Source: Chamaesiphon minutus PCC 6605 | Lineage (GTDB): Bacteria > Cyanobacteriota > Cyanobacteriia > Cyanobacteriales > Chamaesiphonaceae | NCBI RefSeq assembly: GCF_000317145.1 | Contig: NC_019697.1 | Span: 1,240,001-1,304,000, forward strand | Length of the DNA: 64,000 bases | Direction: 5' to 3' | In this document: positions 16,417-55,136 of the stretch, one piece after another | Layout of the letters: each line of letters starts with the position of its first letter | Numbering within the stretch: the stretch's first letter is position 1 | The notes under the pieces: generated by a model | Told to the model about the DNA's origin: nothing | The model's input: the letters and a program-made list of their open reading frames with translations, nothing else | Database searches by the model: none | Program-made: the position numbers and the translations under genes

Positions 16417-16515
16417 CGCAATGACCTCAATAAATAGAATAGATTATAGTGCAATTACACTTTTTCGATCCCTGCCGAACTCGAAGCGCAAGCGCGACGA
16501 CAAGTCGTTCGATAA

Positions 16516-47927: not shown

Positions 47928-48464
47928 CTAATCCACACCTCGCTCCAAAATTGCATCAGCCAGCGTCTTCGCCGCCTTACCCTGCAACTGCTGCCGCCCA
48001 TCATCATAGCGAATCAATGTAGCCAAATTCTTGTGCCGAGAATGCGCCTGAGCCGAGCGCACGTCCCCACCATTAAGATCTAGTAATGCAGTAATGCTAG
48101 AGTGTCGAATCTTATGCGGACTCACCACCCGTTGGCGTAGCCCCTCGGAACGAGGCTCGATTCCCGCAGCCTCAGCCAATCCCCCGACGATCAGATAGAG
48201 ACGATCGACACTTATCCGTGTATCTCGACTAGAGACAAATAAAGCTGGACTTCTACTTTCGCCCATACTCACCAACCAATCCGAGATCGCCTCAACTGTG
48301 GCAGGAGCCAGATCGATCGGTTCTTTATCGATTCTCCCCTTGCCCTTGAGCATCAATCTTGCCTCTAGGGCGTGAAAATCTACTCGATCGAGTCCACACA
48401 CCTCAGCACGCCTCAAGGCATTATCCCAGAGCAACCTTAGCATCGCATAATCGCGCTTACCCAT
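47928..48464 (-). pseudogene. Tyrosine recombinase remnant (catalytic domain only)
   Basis: 178 residues of an XerC/D-type integrase: Arg in LLWDNALRRAEV, HKIRHSS (His-x2-Arg), HSRHKN and the nucleophile Tyr in LIRYDDGRQ. The N-terminal SAM-like DNA-binding domain is missing. Upstream in frame, IDRTTVMGKRDYAM is recognisable inside the overlapping PD-(D/E)XK gene, which marks a deletion junction. A dispersed repeat adds EPRSEGLRQR. Confidence 0.8.
48132..48158. repeat. Small dispersed repeat inside integrase remnant
   Basis: TTGGCGTAGCCCCTCGGAACGAGG; GGCTACGCCAACG sub-type, in frame. Confidence 0.7.
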
Positions 48465-49093
48465 GACTGTCGTTCGATCGATCGCATCAATTTGAGAATA
48501 CCCAGAATTCTGTCGATCGGATCGAGTGGATATTCAGTAACATCAATCGTTAAAATTTGCCCTGTCAATTTGAGAAATTGCCACATCGTTCCGGTGGTAA
48601 CGCTGCCATAGATCGTCGGTACTTCTTGTCCATTAGCTTGATTAAATTTCACAGCGGCAATCATTTCAGCCGCACATTGCCCCCAGCCAGCATTCAACTC
48701 CCCTTTGTTAGCTTCGATGATGATAATCGCTGGAGCTTCAATACTCACTTCAGAAGTCGAGCGAGTCAGAAGAAAATCACAGACTCCGTTTAGTCCTGAC
48801 TCTAGATCGATGCTGAAATCTGTGCCTGAGAAAAAACTGACCTGACGATCGAGTAATTCTCGAAATTCAAACAACAATGGTGCAATAATTAACTCCGAAG
48901 CTTGCGCGTCGTCTAACGACGATCGCACCTTCTCAGTCCCCAGTGTCACAGCCAGCGGAGCTGATTTTGCTAATAGAGTAGTTAACCACTCACCAGGAGT
49001 AAGTGTGGGTACATTATTAAAGAACGGCTCAGTGACCACCTCGATTTGAAATTGTCGCTTAACTTGAGCGATCGTGAAGCTACTGTAAGGCAT
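48437..49093 (-). CDS. PD-(D/E)XK nuclease-like protein, fused end
   Basis: 218 residues resembling a cyanobacterial family with a restriction-endonuclease-like fold. FEFRELLDRQVSFFSG, then Asp in GLNGVCDFLLTRS and Glu/Lys in IIIIEANKGELNAGWGQCAAEM. The natural end is probably near DRILGILK; the last residues (LMRSIERQSWVSAIMRC) are read from integrase DNA, so this gene was joined to the integrase remnant by a deletion. Role unknown; defence is a possibility. Confidence 0.65.
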   Translation of the reverse strand: MPYSSFTIAQVKRQFQIEVVTEPFFNNVPTLTPGEWLTTLLAKSAPLAVTLGTEKVRSSLDDAQASELIIAPLLFEFRELLDRQVSFFSGTDFSIDLESGLNGVCDFLLTRSTSEVSIEAPAIIIIEANKGELNAGWGQCAAEMIAAVKFNQANGQEVPTIYGSVTTGTMWQFLKLTGQILTIDVTEYPLDPIDRILGILKLMRSIERQSWVSAIMRC

Positions 49094-49215
49094 AAATCAG
49101 TATCTTACCTATCCTGGTATTGTTGGGAAAGTTAAATCTTCAAGTAAAGTTGTATTCTGTAATTGAATTTCTAGATTAACTTCATTAATAACTAGCCACT
49201 GGGGTTCGGGCCAAC

Positions 49216-49635
49216 TCATTCGTCTTCATCCGTTAGTATTGCGTCGAGATCGAGATCGACTTGGGCAACCAATGGCTGAATCCGGTTTAGCAGATCGGTA
49301 TTAACTGCTTGTAAATGCTTGGTAGTTTGAAGATCTCGTGCTAGAAAATTCAGAAACTGACCTAAGAGTGGATCGCTATTTGACTCTCCAACGGAGAGCG
49401 ATACCTGCCGAGCAGACAAGGCTGTTTGCAACCCTTGTCCAGTGATACCAATTTGTGCAGCCATATCACCAACACTTCGCACGCGATCGAGAACGCGCAA
49501 TGATGCAAATAATGCGTCATTGTCGCGATCTTCAGCAAAATCTTGGAAAATTTCCGTCAGGTAATCGTCGATCTCTTCAGGACGATCTCGGAAATATGCC
49601 TCGGTAACTTCATTAAGGGTTCTCAGTTTTCGCAT
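49216..49635 (-). CDS. Addiction-module antidote-like protein
   Basis: 139 residues. The start LRTLNEVTEAYFRDRPEEIDDYLTEIF and the HTH DMAAQIGITGQGLQTALSA match the probable addiction-module antidote family (HigA-like), with an additional C-terminal helical tail. No matching RelE/HigB toxin is adjacent. Confidence 0.8.
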   Translation of the reverse strand: MRKLRTLNEVTEAYFRDRPEEIDDYLTEIFQDFAEDRDNDALFASLRVLDRVRSVGDMAAQIGITGQGLQTALSARQVSLSVGESNSDPLLGQFLNFLARDLQTTKHLQAVNTDLLNRIQPLVAQVDLDLDAILTDEDE

Positions 49636-49694
49636 TAATGTGATACTCTTTAAAAATTCTATTTACTGGCGAAGAGTAGATCTCGATCCCCGAT

Positions 49695-50150
49695 CTACAC
49701 TAAAGATTCTAGTGGCTCGATCTCAATTTCGACGCTGTGTTTAAAACTAATACCCAAAGCACCGACAATCTTCATCAATCGATCGAAACTAATAGCATGA
49801 TAATGATTGGCTTCATAACGTTGAATTTGCTGTTCTTGAGTATCAATCTTTTCTGCCAGCTCTTTTTGAGTCATTCCCAATGCAATTCGAGCTTTAATTA
49901 GGGCTGTTGGCAGCTCGTTGAAGGATTCGATTTGGAATACTGCAATCCGACCGCTCTTGAGTTCCTCATATTCAGCAATCTCTTGTTTTAAGGTACCAAT
50001 TACTCGATTGTAACTATTCTTTTGAGATAGTATTTGCCGAGGGTGTAAACTGGGATCTTCAAGATCTATATTAGCAGATGCCTGTTCTAATTCTCTTAAT
50101 TTAGTCTGGGTAACTTTATACTGACGTTCGTTTTGAATCATATTTTTCAC
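49695..50150 (-). CDS. XRE-family antitoxin with N-terminal coil
   Basis: 151 residues. A coiled N-terminus (RQYKVTQTKLRELEQASANI) and an HTH: LPTALIKARIALGMTQKELAEKIDTQEQQIQRYEANHY. It ends six bases after the neighbouring DUF6932 gene begins its run, and on the same strand, so the two form a toxin-antitoxin-type unit. Confidence 0.85.
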   Translation of the reverse strand: MKNMIQNERQYKVTQTKLRELEQASANIDLEDPSLHPRQILSQKNSYNRVIGTLKQEIAEYEELKSGRIAVFQIESFNELPTALIKARIALGMTQKELAEKIDTQEQQIQRYEANHYHAISFDRLMKIVGALGISFKHSVEIEIEPLESLV

Positions 50151-50156
50151 TCCAAC

Positions 50157-50561
50157 TTAACTAATTAATTCTCTAGGATCTAAAGCGACAACTCCTCTGG
50201 GATTACCTTCTTTATCGGTTTGTAAGAAGCGGTCGTAACCAATTGTCGGAAATAGTTCGCCACAGAACACATCCTGTTGAGAATCGGTGTGTTCAACAAA
50301 TAATGCGTCGAGCAGCTCGAAATCGAGTCCAAAATTATCGTAATAAGCATCGAAATCACGAGGTTCTGCTTTAGCCGAGATAAAGCTACCACCAATAACG
50401 ACGCGGGTACAACCAGCGATTGCTAATTTACGAAGGGCTGCGGCCAATCCAGTCACAATCCGTTGTCGCTGTGGATTAGTTGCAAACCGTTCCATCAACT
50501 CTGGCCACCGAATTTCATAGACTCCAGGCGGCAGATAACCCAGTTCGTTAAATGGTGGCAT
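50157..50561 (-). CDS. DUF6932 family nucleotidyltransferase-like protein
   Basis: 134 residues. Motif VVIGGSFISAKAEPRDFDAYYD is a nucleotidyltransferase Gly-Gly-Ser / Asp-x-Asp site. Paired with the XRE protein, so it is the likely toxin (AMP- or other nucleotide transfer). The substrate is not known. Confidence 0.8.
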   Translation of the reverse strand: MPPFNELGYLPPGVYEIRWPELMERFATNPQRQRIVTGLAAALRKLAIAGCTRVVIGGSFISAKAEPRDFDAYYDNFGLDFELLDALFVEHTDSQQDVFCGELFPTIGYDRFLQTDKEGNPRGVVALDPRELIS

Positions 50562-50866
50562 TCATCAACCCAGCAAAAAAAGCGTGTCATACAACGATAA
50601 TAACATGCTTTTGAGATTCGATCGATCGTGCTTGAGTGCCAATTCCCGTGTAAAGATCGAAATAGATCGAGATCCGAAACTAAATCGATCCTTAATTTCT
50701 GAAGCCTATATACCAAAGCAATTTCACAAAACACAGGTGTGATAAAGTTATCCGATCGATTGCCTGAGTTCCAGATACTGCAACTGTTTGACCGGATGAG
50801 ATCGAAATGATTCTGGATCTCGATCTATATCGATCTAACTTTATCTCTGTAAACGTTCAGATAGAC

Positions 50867-50999
50867 TTGGAGTTGTGTGCCTCAACCGTCTGATAAAAAG
50901 CCGCTTCAGCCGCCTTTGCTGGATACCGACGAAAACTAATAGCCGTAGAGCGATATTGAGGTCGTTAAAAGGGCTAGGTGAGACATCTACATAAGATTT
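50867..50999 (-). pseudogene. Frameshifted C-terminal gene remnant
   Basis: On the minus strand, SYVDVSPSPFNDLNIALR is followed, after loss of one base, by AISFRRYPAKAAEAAFYQTVEAHNS and a stop. The junction is at CGG|CTATTAGT, where a single G would restore one frame. The family is unknown to me. No start remains. Confidence 0.5.
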
Positions 51000-51010
51000 A
51001 ATTTCCCAAA

Positions 51011-51029
51011 GGCAACGCTACGCGAACGG
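51011..51029. repeat. Small dispersed repeat, intergenic fragment
   Basis: GGCAACGCTACGCGAACGG, a partial copy just upstream of the DUF1016 gene. Confidence 0.6.
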
Positions 51030-51047
51030 TAATCCCCTCAAACCCGC

Positions 51048-51836
51048 ATGGATCGACTCAGTACTGAATATCAAGAACTCCTTATCAGTCTCAAACAGCG
51101 GATTCTCACCAGCCAAATTCGGGCGGCTCTGGCGGTTAATCGGGAGTTGATTCTGCTCTACTGGCAAATTGGGCGAGAAATTCTGTTGAGACAGTCTCAA
51201 CAAGGTTGGGGGGCGAAAGTCATCGAATTCGCTTCGCGAACGCTCCGCGATCGATTGTCCCAGGACTTACAGGCGGAGTTTCCCGAACTCAAAGGATTAT
51301 CTGGTCGCAATCTCAAATATATGCGGGCGTTTGCAGAGGCTTATCCAGAAGATGAATTTGTGCAACAGCTTGTTGCACAAATTCCTTGGGGTCATAATGT
51401 TGTGCTACTCGATCGGGTGAAAGATAGTGAGGCTAGACTTTGGTACGCCCAACAGGTGACGACTAATGGCTGGTCGCGGAATATACTGGCAATGCAGATT
51501 GAGAGCCAGCTATATCAACGCCAGGGTCAAGCTGTAATCAATTTTGAAGCAACTTTACCTCCAGATCGCACAGATCTTGTTTACCTGTCAGCAGTAGACG
51601 ATTTGCTGCGCCATCCTGATGATGAACCGACGATTGGGATGTTGCTGTGTCGGTCTAAAAATGGGGTGGTGGCTGAATATGCGCTGCGGGATATTAATCA
51701 GCCAATGGGGGTGGCCCAGTGGACTCAGGCTTTGACTAAATCGTTACCAGATCCCCTGGTGTCGAAACTACCTTCGATCGCGGAGTTGGAGGCGGAATTA
51801 GGTGCGATTGAGTTGGGGGCAGGTGGCGATGGTTAA
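51048..51836 (+). pseudogene. DUF1016 (YhcG-type) nuclease lacking its catalytic core
   Basis: 262 residues, against about 340-370. The N-terminal helical domain is normal (RILTSQIRAALAVNRELILLYWQIGREIL ... LSGRNLKYMRAF ... IPWGHNVVLLDRVKD). After NFEATLPPDRTDL (residue about 177) the sequence skips straight to YLSAVDDLLRHPDDEPTIGMLLC, so about 85 residues carrying the PD-(D/E)XK active site (GRQYHLEV...DLLFYH...VVIELK in relatives) are missing in frame. A 24-bp dispersed repeat (EFASRTLR, residues 60-67) is also inserted. Nuclease activity is lost; a protein-binding role could remain. Confidence 0.85.
51225..51248. repeat. 24-bp small dispersed repeat inside DUF1016 gene
   Basis: GAATTCGCTTCGCGAACGCT ending CCGC, in frame, between VI and DRLSQDL. 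Confidence 0.85.
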
Positions 51837-52321
51837 GTCCAAGCAAATTCCTGAGAAGTGTCACCGTTGCGCTTTGCTAGGTGCTGCGGAGGCACGATCG
51901 AATCACCCTCATTGTTGGGACGATCGATTGTGTCATTCGCGGCGTTCTTATGCGCGTAACCGCGACAAAATCAATCAGAAACGGGCACGAGTAAGAATCG
52001 AGCAGGTACATCAGGTGGATGTGCCCCAGGTAAATTATGGAGTCTTGCAGGTGTGGCGGGAGTTACGGGAAGATTCGCCGATTCATGCGAAGCTTGCGCG
52101 CCGCCTCGGCGGTCGGGATTGAGGTCTGGGATGGGCATAATAAGTTAGCAGTGGTGCAGCCAGTCCATTGTGCTGGATGGTTGCCATCTCAAGTGCATGA
52201 GTATCTTCGGCAAGTTTTAGAAGTGTTAGGGACGGAGTATGGATTTAAAAAGTTGGCATCTCAAGAACTAATCCATCCCAGTCAATGCCCGATTCGTCCA
52301 TGTTATCTATGCCAGAAATAA
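51829..52321 (+). pseudogene. Conserved cyanobacterial protein, frameshifted by a 25-bp element
   Basis: Starts at the ATG overlapping the DUF1016 stop (MVKSKQIPEKCHRCALLGAAEARS, with CHRC...HPHCWDDRLC Cys pairs that suggest a zinc site). The first frame runs to PIHA and is then derailed by the 25-bp element at 52090-52114; the second frame (GIEVWDGHNKLAVVQPVHCAGWLP ... FKKLASQELIHPSQCPIRPCYLC) is the rest of the same protein. Excising the element gives SPIHAGIEVWDG. Confidence 0.85.
52090..52114. repeat. 25-bp inserted element, orientation 1
   Basis: AAGCTTGCGCGCCGCCTCGG then CGGTC. Identical (as the reverse complement) to the copy at 52570-52594; identity extends to 29 bp (52087-52115 and 52569-52597). 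Disrupts the gene at 51829. Confidence 0.9.
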
Positions 52322-52996
52322 TTCAGTTAACTATCTGGGACAGATTGGATCTAGCTACAACTAACTCAGTTGGAGCAGACTTCTTGGGGCTGTTGACAGA
52401 AGTTGATGAATCGATCGATCGGTTACTTCCAGAAGATAAACTAGAAGCAGCCGGAGAAGCAATCCGTAGGCTGGGTGAGATTTATGCCGATCGATCGGCG
52501 ATGCAGCTCTCGGAGATCGAATATCTGTTTCGTCCAGAACAAGAACCTGTAATGTCTCTGGATGCTTTCGACCGCCGAGGCGGCGCGCAAGCTTCGCTAT
52601 GTGCGACAATCAATGCTGGTGGATCTGGAGCAGTTTATTGAGGCTCCAGCGTTGCCGGAATACGAGCGAGAATATCATCTGACGGTAGTGCGCGAGCAGT
52701 CAAAAGCTGAGATCTTGGCGGCAATCAGTGAGTCTGAAGAGATCGATCCAGAAGTAGCCTATCAACAAGCAATGGCATTAGCACACGATGAAAATGTATC
52801 TGAGTGGGGAGCAGCAATCTCTGTGGGATTGGATGAGTGGGATAATGAGTCAGTGCCATTATTGGAGTTACAGAGATCGATTGAGATGCCCCTGGTGCAA
52901 GTTTGGCTTGGTTTGCTACTGAATGGGTTTAAGATCGAACAGCGTGGTGAATTCTACGAGACAGAGCAGGTTTGGGTTTTGCGAGAAATACTCTAA
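52309..52996 (+). pseudogene. Conserved cyanobacterial protein, frameshifted by the inverted 25-bp element
   Basis: First frame MPEIIQLTIWDRLDLATT ... SEIEYLFRPEQEPVMSLDAF, then a frame change at 52570-52594 and continuation YVRQSMLVDLEQFIEAPALPEYEREYHLTVV ... LLLNGFKIEQRGEFYETEQVWVL. Excising 25 bp gives SLDAFRYVRQSM. Follows the previous gene by overlap, so both were one operon with DUF1016. Function unknown. Confidence 0.85.
52570..52594. repeat. 25-bp inserted element, orientation 2
   Basis: GACCGCCGAGGCGGCGCGCA then AGCTT: exact reverse complement of the copy at 52090-52114. Disrupts the gene at 52309. Confidence 0.9.
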
Positions 52997-53261
52997 AATA
53001 CGATCGATCTTACGGGAGGCTGTGAGTTTGACAGAGACAGCGTAGATTCTACGGTACCCACACTCAGTGCCAGGAAGGGATACACCCTACGGATTTAACG
53101 ATCGTCGAAACAGTAAAATAGAATACTTGTTGGAGATCGATTTTCGTTCCGTAAGCGCAAAGCGCAACCGTTGCCAAAATGTAGCGTTTGCCCCCGCAGA
53201 AAGGCTGCGCCAACGAGTCTCAATTACCATCATCAGCCCCTGAATCATTTTTGAAAAGAGA
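52997..53261. other. Gap before the XPB operon
   Basis: About 265 bases without a gene. Contains a dispersed repeat near 53193-53215 (GCAGAAAGGCTGCGCCAACG). The operon promoter is probably here. Confidence 0.5.
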
Positions 53262-55136
53262 ATGCCCTACTACAGCCAGATCGATCGCATCCCCACTTTA
53301 TTAGAGGCACTCAACATCCACACGGTTGACGTGCTCAAGAAACTGGCGGGTTTGTTACCTGGAGGTAAATCCCCAACTCGCAAAGCCGAACTAGTTGAAT
53401 ATATCCATCAATCGCTGGAAGGCTCGACGCTGATGAGATTGTGGGGACAGTGCGATCGACTTCAGCAAGCGGCAATTGCTGAGACTGTCCATTCTAGCAC
53501 CAGCGATCGATACGAAAAAATTAGGTTTGTGAGTAAGTATAATGAAGCTCCTAGCTGGGGTGCGGGGAAGTATGGTTATAGCTATGATTTTAAGCCGACG
53601 GCGTTGGATTTGTTCTTCTATAATTCCATCATGCCGCAAGACTTGAAACAGCGGTTGCGGGGGTTTGTACCGCAGCCAGCATCTACTCAGATTGCCAGTC
53701 AGGAGACGATTTCAGCTACGCTGTCAGTGACGAGAATGGAGTTCGATCGCCAAACTCGTACGCGGACACCTTATGAGGTGGAGTTCCCGATGCAAATGCG
53801 GGAAACCGAGCAAGTGGCAAGGCGGGAGTTGCTGACGGTATTGAGATTGGTGGATTTGGGGAAAGTGGCGGTTAGCGATAAAACTTTTAATCCTGCCACT
53901 GCGACACTAAAAGCGATCGAACAAGTCTTAGAAGAAGGTGACTATTATAGTGAATGGAAATTCGATAAATCTCCAGAAGGTTGGCGTTATAATTACTCGA
54001 TCGGTCAGATTAAACCCTTTGCTTGGGTAATGTTATTACAAGCAGGAAAACTGGTAGAGTTGAGTGGTAAAAATCTCAGACTAACAAAAGCTGGGCAAAA
54101 AGCTTTAATCGAACCAGCCGAGAAAACACTGCAAATTATCTGGAAAAATTGGCAAAAAACTACGTTATTCGATGAACTACGGCGAGTAGATGGGATTAAA
54201 GGACAAACGGGAAAAGGCAAACGTTCCCTGACTGCTGTTGCTGGAAGACGCACCCAACTTGTGGCAGCATTGAAAGATTGTCCAGTCGGAGAATGGATCA
54301 GAATTACTGAATTCTTTCGCTATATTCTAGCGGCGGGATACGATCTAGTCGTCTGTCGCAGCCTCGAAAATTTGACGATCGATGGGGAAAGTGGTAGTTA
54401 CTATGATGCTAATTTCAATATCGTCGAAGCTCGGTATATAGTCTGTTGTTTGTTTGAATATATCGCGACATTGGGCATAATTGATGTGTCGTTTCTTCAT
54501 CCTGATGATAGTCTGGCAAACTTTAAAAATGATGGTAATGATTATTATATTGACAATCCTTTAAGCAGTTATGATGGGTTGGCATATTTTCGGATTACGC
54601 CTTTGGGTGCTTATTTATTAGGCATTAGCGATCTATATATTCCCAAAGAATTATCTCAGAAACAAATTCTGCGAATTTTGCCGAATTTAGAGGTTGTCGC
54701 GGTGGGTGAATTATCTCGTGCAGATCGATTAATGCTCGATAGTAGTTTGCAGAATGTTTCTGATTCAGTGTGGACATTCGATCGAGGTAAATTATTAGAA
54801 GCAATTGCTCAAGGGCGAAGTGTTGAAGAACTGAAAACTTTTTTGGTGGCTAATAGTGGTGAAGTTCTGCCCCAAACTGTGCTCCAGTTTCTCGCAGATC
54901 TCCAAACTCGTACCACCAGTTTGCAAGATCTCGGTGCGGCTAGATTGATTCGGTGTGTAGATCCCGCTTTGGCTGTCCTGATTGCTAATGATACTCGCAC
55001 GAAGGCTTTTTGTTTCCTCGCAGATCGACCGACGGCGATGATGGCGGGAGCCGCCTGTTATTTAGTCGTCCCGACAGAAACCGAAACTAAGTTTCGCAAC
55101 GCACTCAAGAAGATTGGATATAGTTTGCCGAATTAA
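53262..55136 (+). CDS. XPB-associated protein with helicase N-terminal-like domain
   Basis: 624 residues. N-terminal helices (IPTLLEALNIHTVDVLKKLAGLLPG ... RKAELVEYIHQSLEG) form a SAP/HeH-like unit, then a long region of winged-helix type (LTKAGQKALIEP, ITPLGAYLLGI). The last 180 residues (LPNLEVVAVGELSRADRLML ... LPQTVLQFLADLQTRTTSLQDLGAARLIRC ... KIGYSLPN) resemble the N-terminal domain of the neighbouring helicase (Helicase_C_3/XPB-N). No catalytic motif. It ends six bases before the helicase gene, so they are one operon and probably one complex. Confidence 0.8.
   Translation: MPYYSQIDRIPTLLEALNIHTVDVLKKLAGLLPGGKSPTRKAELVEYIHQSLEGSTLMRLWGQCDRLQQAAIAETVHSSTSDRYEKIRFVSKYNEAPSWGAGKYGYSYDFKPTALDLFFYNSIMPQDLKQRLRGFVPQPASTQIASQETISATLSVTRMEFDRQTRTRTPYEVEFPMQMRETEQVARRELLTVLRLVDLGKVAVSDKTFNPATATLKAIEQVLEEGDYYSEWKFDKSPEGWRYNYSIGQIKPFAWVMLLQAGKLVELSGKNLRLTKAGQKALIEPAEKTLQIIWKNWQKTTLFDELRRVDGIKGQTGKGKRSLTAVAGRRTQLVAALKDCPVGEWIRITEFFRYILAAGYDLVVCRSLENLTIDGESGSYYDANFNIVEARYIVCCLFEYIATLGIIDVSFLHPDDSLANFKNDGNDYYIDNPLSSYDGLAYFRITPLGAYLLGISDLYIPKELSQKQILRILPNLEVVAVGELSRADRLMLDSSLQNVSDSVWTFDRGKLLEAIAQGRSVEELKTFLVANSGEVLPQTVLQFLADLQTRTTSLQDLGAARLIRCVDPALAVLIANDTRTKAFCFLADRPTAMMAGAACYLVVPTETETKFRNALKKIGYSLPN

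What the first reader, a model, noticed from the sequence alone, without database searches (positions are those of the whole stretch)
52087..52597. One 25-bp element in opposite orientations frameshifts two adjacent genes
The same 25 bases (AAGCTTGCGCGCCGCCTCGG-CGGTC) interrupt the gene at 51829 and, reversed, the gene at 52309. Cutting exactly 25 bp from each restores a single continuous protein (SPIHA|GIEVWDG and SLDAF|RYVRQSM). Identity extends to 29 bp. Both insertions shift the frame by the same amount. The 453-bp stretch between them is flanked by inverted copies, so homologous or site-specific inversion is conceivable.
Basis: partly seen in the sequence, partly recalled or inferred. Interest (0 to 1): 0.85.

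Follow-up and report, generated by a model that had tools for sequence, protein, structure and literature searches.

The report
Tiny 22-bp mobile element breaks genes
A 22-base repeat, one of a family of extremely short and apparently mobile DNA elements in the cyanobacterium Chamaesiphon, has inserted at the same six-base motif in two neighbouring genes and put both out of frame; it resembles the known SDR5 element of Nostoc but has its own sequence and insertion point.

Summary
A perfect 29-bp inverted repeat interrupts two adjacent genes. Relatives lack exactly 22 bp (AGCTTGCGCGCCGCCTCGGCGG), not 25; the other 7 shared bases are the target, GCGATCG. The insert sits at the centre of CGATCG (CGA^TCG), with no duplication and no base lost. 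It is an insertion: gene A is empty in 4 of 4 relatives whose alignments cover the site, gene B in 5 of 5, and paralogues in this genome are empty. The element belongs to a family (nearly fixed 10-nt head, 5-bp hairpin with paired changes) with 39 model hits in this genome and 80 in 10 of 11 Chamaesiphonaceae genomes. A third member in the window (48899-48922, 24 nt) sits in frame in another gene. The closest known thing is SDR5 of Nostoc, described as inserted between bases 3 and 4 of HIP1. An SDR5-like 21-mer recovered here has other letters, a cut one base away, and no match in the 7 Chamaesiphon genomes tested. Best reading: a new family of the SDR kind, placed by an unidentified trans-acting process, that disables genes by chance. 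Inversion or programmed bypass has no support here.

The parts
52091..52112 (+). 22-bp element copy 1, AGCTTGCGCGCCGCCTCGGCGG, in gene A
   Evidence: 22-base gap in G001, G002, G006 and G008 orthologues; model R1 hit, 46.0 bits
52572..52593 (-). 22-bp element copy 2, identical, reversed, in gene B
   Evidence: 22-base gap in G001, G002, G003, G007 and in two paralogues of this genome; in G006 two alignments abut at the site; model R1 hit, 49.7 bits
52088..52115 (+). Target halves CGA and TCG with copy 1 between them
   Evidence: empty sites in G001, G002 and G006 read GCGATCGG; G008 reads GCGATTGG
52569..52596 (-). Target halves CGA and TCG with copy 2 between them
   Evidence: G002 empty site reads TTCGATCGCTATGT; the other empty homologues keep CGAT but not the whole CGATCG
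51829..52321 (+). Gene A, interrupted; its pieces match no family in Pfam, PHROGs or NCBIfam
   Evidence: uninterrupted 165-aa orthologues in L015, L016
52309..52996 (+). Gene B, interrupted; its pieces match no family in Pfam, PHROGs or NCBIfam
   Evidence: uninterrupted 221-258-aa homologues in L015, L016, L017, L024, L039
48899..48922 (+). Third family member, 24-bp subtype AGCTTGCGCGTCGTCTAACGACGA, between CGA and TCG
   Evidence: 24-base gap in four homologues L292, L283, L293, L285; the placement can slide a few bases, and only L293 keeps an intact CGATCG; model R1 hit, 49.6 bits
48437..49093 (-). Gene carrying the 24-bp member in frame (218 aa filled, 210 aa empty)
   Evidence: end points computed by hand; no Pfam match to its longer piece

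Best explanation
The two copies are seamless insertions of one non-coding 22-nt mobile element into CGATCG sites of two neighbouring genes. The element belongs to a Chamaesiphon family made of a nearly fixed head (AGCTTGCGCG) and a 5-bp hairpin whose sequence changes in step on both sides. It codes for nothing. An unidentified machinery acting in trans must place it at the centre of the palindrome, CGA^TCG, as a blunt insertion without target duplication. I infer that a hairpin-forming single-stranded (DNA or RNA) copy is the intermediate, and that the second copy came from the first, or both from one source, by a short-range event, since these are the only two exact copies of this 22-nt variant in the genome and they lie 481 bp apart. 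The effect on the host is incidental: 22 or 23 nt in a gene breaks its frame; 24 nt can be carried in frame. Shown: exact insert, target, family, paired changes in the stem, absence in relatives, gene interruption. Inferred: mobility in trans, the intermediate, the local hop, recency.
For: Exact 22-base gaps at CGA^TCG in relatives and paralogues. Family: 39 hits in this genome, 80 in 10 of 11 Chamaesiphonaceae genomes. Of the 25 places in this genome that match the head plus NCGNC exactly, 23 follow CGA, and 22 have both CGA before and TCG 22-25 nt on. Hairpin, without selection for stems: on the 53 places (55 rows, two overlapping pairs counted once; one string, C1:5935697, lengthened by four bases to the TCG seen), 250 of 265 arm cells pair, shuffles mean 225 and maximum 238 of 10,000; 44 of 53 have all five pairs. 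On the 26 distinct strings 115 of 130 cells pair (maximum shuffled 113) and 17 of 26 have all five. On alignment A1 (38 rows, preselected for stems; 8 pairs counted, flanks included) 26 cells are changed on both sides against 6.6 shuffled, 0 of 500. A third insertion in the window has four empty homologues. Family hits cluster: 6 of 37 neighbour gaps under 2.5 kb, 0.55 expected, none of 20,000 random draws as many; without the six IS-borne copies 5 against 0.40 (C3 was entered there 31 kb too long).
Against: No enzyme was found: the loci of the five Y1-type transposase genes hold no convincing member. Folding energy of four test strings is no better than shuffles, z from -0.63 to +0.74 as RNA and DNA. 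In one search only two of the eight pairs show both-side changes, and the counts of such pairs (2 against 1.8, 410 of 500 shuffles as high) and of further pair types (6 against 5.4, 204 of 500) are not above shuffles; the case for structure rests on cells and score. Of the clusters other than the window pair, most join different subtypes, so they may reflect tolerant regions rather than local hops. For gene B only one of five empty relatives (G002) keeps an intact CGATCG. No movement was observed.
Confidence: 0.85

Rival explanations
1. The element is removed after transcription or skipped by the ribosome, as the byp elements of yeast mitochondria are (recalled), so that genes A and B still make full proteins.
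For: Apart from the 22 nt both genes are open from end to end (165 and 229 aa). Members also sit in other reading frames: tyrosine recombinases, a NACHT gene, a histidine kinase, lipoyl synthase.
Against: The element is in opposite orientations relative to the two genes, so no single RNA signal serves both. Open paralogues of both genes exist at C1 1.61 Mb, and one of gene B on C3, so loss is affordable. The histidine kinase and lipoyl synthase members are of the 24-nt form, in frame, which needs no bypass.
Confidence: 0.04
2. The 29-bp inverted copies serve a site-specific or homologous inversion switch of the 453-bp segment.
For: Perfect inverted repeats flank the segment.
Against: Members of the same family are scattered through the genome; of 47 rows examined 33 have no spanning reading frame of 100 aa or more. 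The current orientation is the ancestral one. None of the six frame pieces tested is a recombinase; other frames of the region were not tested.
Confidence: 0.02
3. The family is a REP-like passenger moved by an IS200/IS605-type (RAYT, Y1) transposase, which inserts single-stranded DNA without target duplication (mechanism recalled).
For: Short hairpin element, no duplication, five Y1 genes over cut-off in the genome. REPINs occur in RAYT-bearing genomes including Nostoc punctiforme (PMC3116915, passages).
Against: No convincing member within the loci (16.6 kb in all) of the five Y1 genes, best score 7.6 bits. The target is kept on both sides as a palindrome, while IS200/IS605 targets are set by the 5' side (recalled). 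No GTAG or CGTC tag at either end of the 18 element sequences (by eye; CGTC does occur inside the stem of some subtypes).
Confidence: 0.12
4. Assembly or sequencing artefact.
For: None beyond the surprise of two identical insertions 481 bp apart.
Against: The family occurs in ten separately held genomes and in named records of several projects; one insertion is shared by two species at the same place in a gene.
Confidence: 0.01

Closest known systems
SDR5, small dispersed repeat of Nostoc (Elhai et al. 2008, not held; mentioned in PMC4390886)
   Same: Short non-coding repeat, many copies, inserted precisely inside the HIP1/CGATCG palindrome.
   Different: SDR5 is said to sit between bases 3 and 4 of HIP1 (PMC4390886, passage). 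The SDR5-like 21-mer recovered here is TAGGCGTAGCCCGTCGTAGAC at GCG^ATCGC, with 75-163 matches (up to 3 mismatches) in each of five f33/g87 genomes and none in 7 Chamaesiphon genomes. Ours sits between bases 4 and 5, needs only CGATCG (3 of 40 preselected sites are full HIP1), has no evident sequence kinship and is 22-25 nt in 47 preselected rows.
REP / REPIN elements with RAYT transposases
   Same: Short dispersed hairpins, no coding capacity, moved in trans.
   Different: No GTAG/CGTC tag at the ends, no Y1 gene nearby, insertion at one palindromic hexamer, also inside genes.
Byp elements of yeast mitochondria (recalled)
   Same: Short mobile inserts inside coding sequence.
   Different: No evidence of bypass; both orientations occur; dispersed through the genome, also outside long reading frames.

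Membership tests
SDR kind (very small dispersed, mobile repeats of cyanobacteria) | 21-27 nt, dispersed, multi-copy (range recalled from the 2008 abstract) | tested here: met
   47 rows of 22-25 nt (preselected for stems, six of them copies of one IS-borne insertion); 39 hits in this genome; a few short-headed or nested copies fall outside this range
SDR kind (very small dispersed, mobile repeats of cyanobacteria) | insertion shown by empty sites | tested here: met
   three sites of the window; for the histidine-kinase copy no spanning homologue was found; other copies not tested
SDR kind (very small dispersed, mobile repeats of cyanobacteria) | secondary structure kept by compensatory change (recalled for SDR4-6) | tested here: met
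   limited to two pairs, and two of the five measures are not above shuffles
SDR5 | insertion between bases 3 and 4 of HIP1 | tested here: not met
   ours is between bases 4 and 5, unambiguous for the 22-nt form; 3 of 40 sites are GCGATCGC
SDR5 | SDR5 sequence | tested here: inconclusive
   the published letters were not available; the SDR5-like 21-mer, identified by its insertion point only, has other letters and no match in the 7 Chamaesiphon genomes tested
REP/RAYT | GTAG or CGTC tag at one end | tested here: not met
   none at either end of the 18 element sequences (by eye)
REP/RAYT | Y1 transposase gene flanked by the repeat | tested here: not met
   5 of 5 Y1 loci without a convincing R1 hit; best 7.6 bits, E 0.37

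The most novel reading that the evidence does not exclude
Chamaesiphon holds an active, separate lineage of roughly 22-nt mobile elements whose machinery opens CGATCG at its exact centre and seals in a hairpin-bearing copy; the identical inverted pair in this window is a snapshot of one short-range copying event. Together with SDR5 in Nostoc, one base off in the same palindrome, this would mean that unrelated tiny elements repeatedly exploit a cut at the CGATCG motif, linking the unexplained HIP1 sites to a cutting activity.
Probability: 0.3. Interest if true: 0.75.

Novelty: new variant of a known kind. Interest (0 to 1): 0.52.

Why it matters
These would be among the smallest mobile elements known, and how a 22-nt piece without a gene moves is open. 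A second family with other letters, using the same palindrome one base away from SDR5, suggests that the target rather than the element is the shared part. It points to an activity that opens CGATCG, the core of the over-abundant HIP1 motif whose role is unsettled. An identical pair in two adjacent genes, with empty sister genomes, gives a concrete place to look for movement.

Tried and rejected
Looking for Nostoc punctiforme plasmids by accession (numbers recalled) for the true SDR5 letters failed; the 2008 paper is not held. De novo search for split HIP1 in the first 276 kb from two Nostoc-like genomes gave nothing clear; with 710 kb from five genomes it gave the 21-mer. Of 30 stretches there within six mismatches of the 21-mer, 10 have both GCG before and ATCGC after. 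The first genome-contig scan, with the neighbouring 624-aa protein, confirmed no relative. A plasmid search with genes A and B gave two short matches in Trichormus plasmids. Single-sequence folding did not separate the element from shuffles. Y1 transposases as neighbours: none convincing. Rfam: no match in 48000-53600 at gathering scores. Families for the pieces of genes A and B: none in Pfam, PHROGs or NCBIfam. An empty-site test for the histidine-kinase insertion found no spanning homologue, mostly other element copies. Papers: the searches listed nothing that describes this Chamaesiphon family; I read passages only of four papers. This says nothing of papers outside the held library.

Full report
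What is there. A perfect 29-nt inverted repeat lies at 52087-52115 and 52569-52597. Each copy interrupts an open gene: gene A (51829-52321) and gene B (52309-52996). Their pieces match no family in Pfam, PHROGs or NCBIfam. The gene before them, 51048-51836, is a DUF1016/YhcG nuclease.

Insertion, and its size. A DNA search of the window's own genome and ten relatives (11 genomes) brought in homologues. One alignment spans the site with a 22-base gap for gene A in G001, G002, G006 and G008 (4 of 4) and for gene B in G001, G002, G003 and G007; for G006 gene B two alignments abut at the site (5 of 5). G004, G005, G009 and G010 gave no spanning alignment. In this genome, the paralogues of gene B at C1 1.61 Mb and on C3 have the same 22-base gap, and the C1 paralogue of gene A is empty as judged from two alignments; the C1 pair and C3 gene B are open. 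So the insert is AGCTTGCGCGCCGCCTCGGCGG, 22 bp. Gene A's empty site reads GCGATCGG in G001, G002 and G006 (GCGATTGG in G008); gene B's reads TCGATCGC in G002, while the other homologues keep CGAT with altered following bases. The element sits at CGA^TCG; for this 22-nt form the placement is unique and there is no duplication. Of the 29 shared bases, 7 are the target.

A family. In this genome the head plus NCGNC occurs exactly at 25 places; 23 follow CGA, and 22 of 25 have both CGA before and TCG 22-25 nt downstream. The exceptions are L182 (CGC before), L194 (unrelated surroundings) and L198 (another insert in the loop). A model of 36 positions and 5 pairs (R1) finds 39 hits at E <= 0.01 in this genome and 80 in 10 of 11 Chamaesiphonaceae genomes; some weak hits lack an intact CGA or TCG, such as those at 1838239 and 5602882. 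Six of the 39 share 495 bp to the left and 65-73 bp to the right, as copies of one larger element would. In 388 genomes of the order a stricter pattern matches in 10: seven of the genus and G025, G031, G057. A scan of named species records gave 45 stretches: 23 Chamaesiphon, 8 other cyanobacteria and 14 from other bacteria, which I take for chance without having tested it. That scan, by equal coordinates, is also the evidence for the genus name and for G001 being C. polymorphus; that the window's strain is C. minutus PCC 6605 is recalled from the chromosome length.

Anatomy. A 10-nt head AGCTTGCGCG, nearly invariant, then a hairpin of five pairs with a loop of 2-5 nt. The 47 rows collected have lengths 22 (8), 23 (8), 24 (19), 25 (12); they had been selected for at least four pairs. 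Without that selection, on the 53 places, 250 of 265 arm cells pair (shuffles: mean 225, maximum 238) and 44 of 53 have all five pairs; on the 26 distinct strings 115 of 130 and 17 of 26. Two positions show C-G, U-A and A-U. Against this: the number of pairs with both-side changes and of further pair types is no higher than in shuffles, and folding energies are ordinary. A few hits have a shortened head (AGCG...) or carry another insert in the loop.

Effect on genes. Both window copies (22 nt) break the frame. Judged by reading frames alone, without an empty-site test, a 24-nt member cuts a NACHT gene of this genome's C3 (L058) and a tyrosine-recombinase gene of G002 (L086, both pieces match integrase domains), and a 23-nt member one of G006 (L108, only the longer piece was searched). 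Members of 24 nt are carried in frame in the window gene 48437-49093 (four homologues lack 24 bases there; only one of them, L293, has an intact CGATCG), in a histidine kinase of C. polymorphus (L099), near the start of a lipoyl synthase of G031 (L105), and in a gene shared by this genome and C. polymorphus (L068, L085). In that pair the 24 nt are identical in both species while the 3-kb loci are 87.6% identical, so this insertion appears inherited. Of the 47 rows, 33 have no spanning frame of 100 aa or more.

How it probably works. The element codes for nothing, and its stem is kept by paired changes, so it is probably recognised as a folded strand. The target is read as a whole palindrome and opened at the centre. 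The 22-nt variant with these exact letters occurs only twice in this genome, 481 bp apart; by chance two points on a 6.28-Mb chromosome fall that close with a probability near 1.5e-4 (my arithmetic). Family hits cluster in general (6 gaps under 2.5 kb, 0.55 expected), but the members of the other clusters mostly differ in subtype, so the local hop is inferred for this pair only. The enzyme is unknown; the five Y1 loci hold no convincing member.

Against the known. Elhai 2015 (PMC4390886, passages read) states that SDR5 is inserted between the third and fourth bases of HIP1 and suggests cutting at HIP1 as a partial explanation; it also lists TCGATCGA as the dominant octamer of C. minutus PCC 6605. 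In 710 kb from five unnamed f33/g87 genomes (taken for Nostoc by size and family, not by name) a search for split HIP1 gave a repeated 21-mer at exactly that place. The full pattern, up to 3 mismatches, has 75, 101, 163, 150 and 136 matches in the five genomes and none in the seven Chamaesiphon genomes searched (7 of the 9 of that genus). I take it for SDR5 on its position alone. Ours differs in letters, length, insertion point (one base on) and target: among 40 distinct sites (preselected for flanks and stems) 3 are full HIP1 and 9 TCGATCGA, against 27 and 29 of 218 CGATCG octamers in the window. So it works like SDR5 but is not shown to be SDR5, and it fails the one SDR5 feature that could be tested.

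Verdict. Real, and more than the two genes: a new family of the small-dispersed-repeat kind, with two clean insertions and a third in the window. The frameshifts are ordinary gene damage by a mobile element. The interest lies in the element's size, its exact target and the unknown way it moves.

Noticed in passing
L004, L005, L006, L007, L009, L010 (centre): Six identical 25-nt members sit in one repeated element (495 bp shared to the left, 65-73 bp to the right); by eye the left part looks like the end of a transposase frame, so an insertion sequence carries the member along.
   Followed up: partly
L068 and L085 (centre): A 24-nt member sits at the same place in a gene of two species, just behind a signal-peptide-like start; read in frame (by eye) it adds residues including AQAS, which could serve as a signal-peptidase site.
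   Followed up: partly
L086 (G002) and L108 (G006): Two different tyrosine-recombinase genes appear to be interrupted by family members.
   Followed up: partly
L272 1937-1995 and L269 1929-1993: Other short sequences are nested in the hairpin loop of family members, as if elements insert into each other.
   Followed up: no
L265 4160-4189, L267 1888-1919: A short-headed subtype (AGCG in place of AGCTTGCGCG), still between CGA and TCG.
   Followed up: no
window 16479-16514: Weak model hit (21.2 bits, E 4.6e-4 over 120 kb); may be a worn copy or chance.
   Followed up: no
L105 (G031): A 24-nt member in frame near the start of a lipoyl synthase gene, in a genome outside the family Chamaesiphonaceae.
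   Followed up: partly
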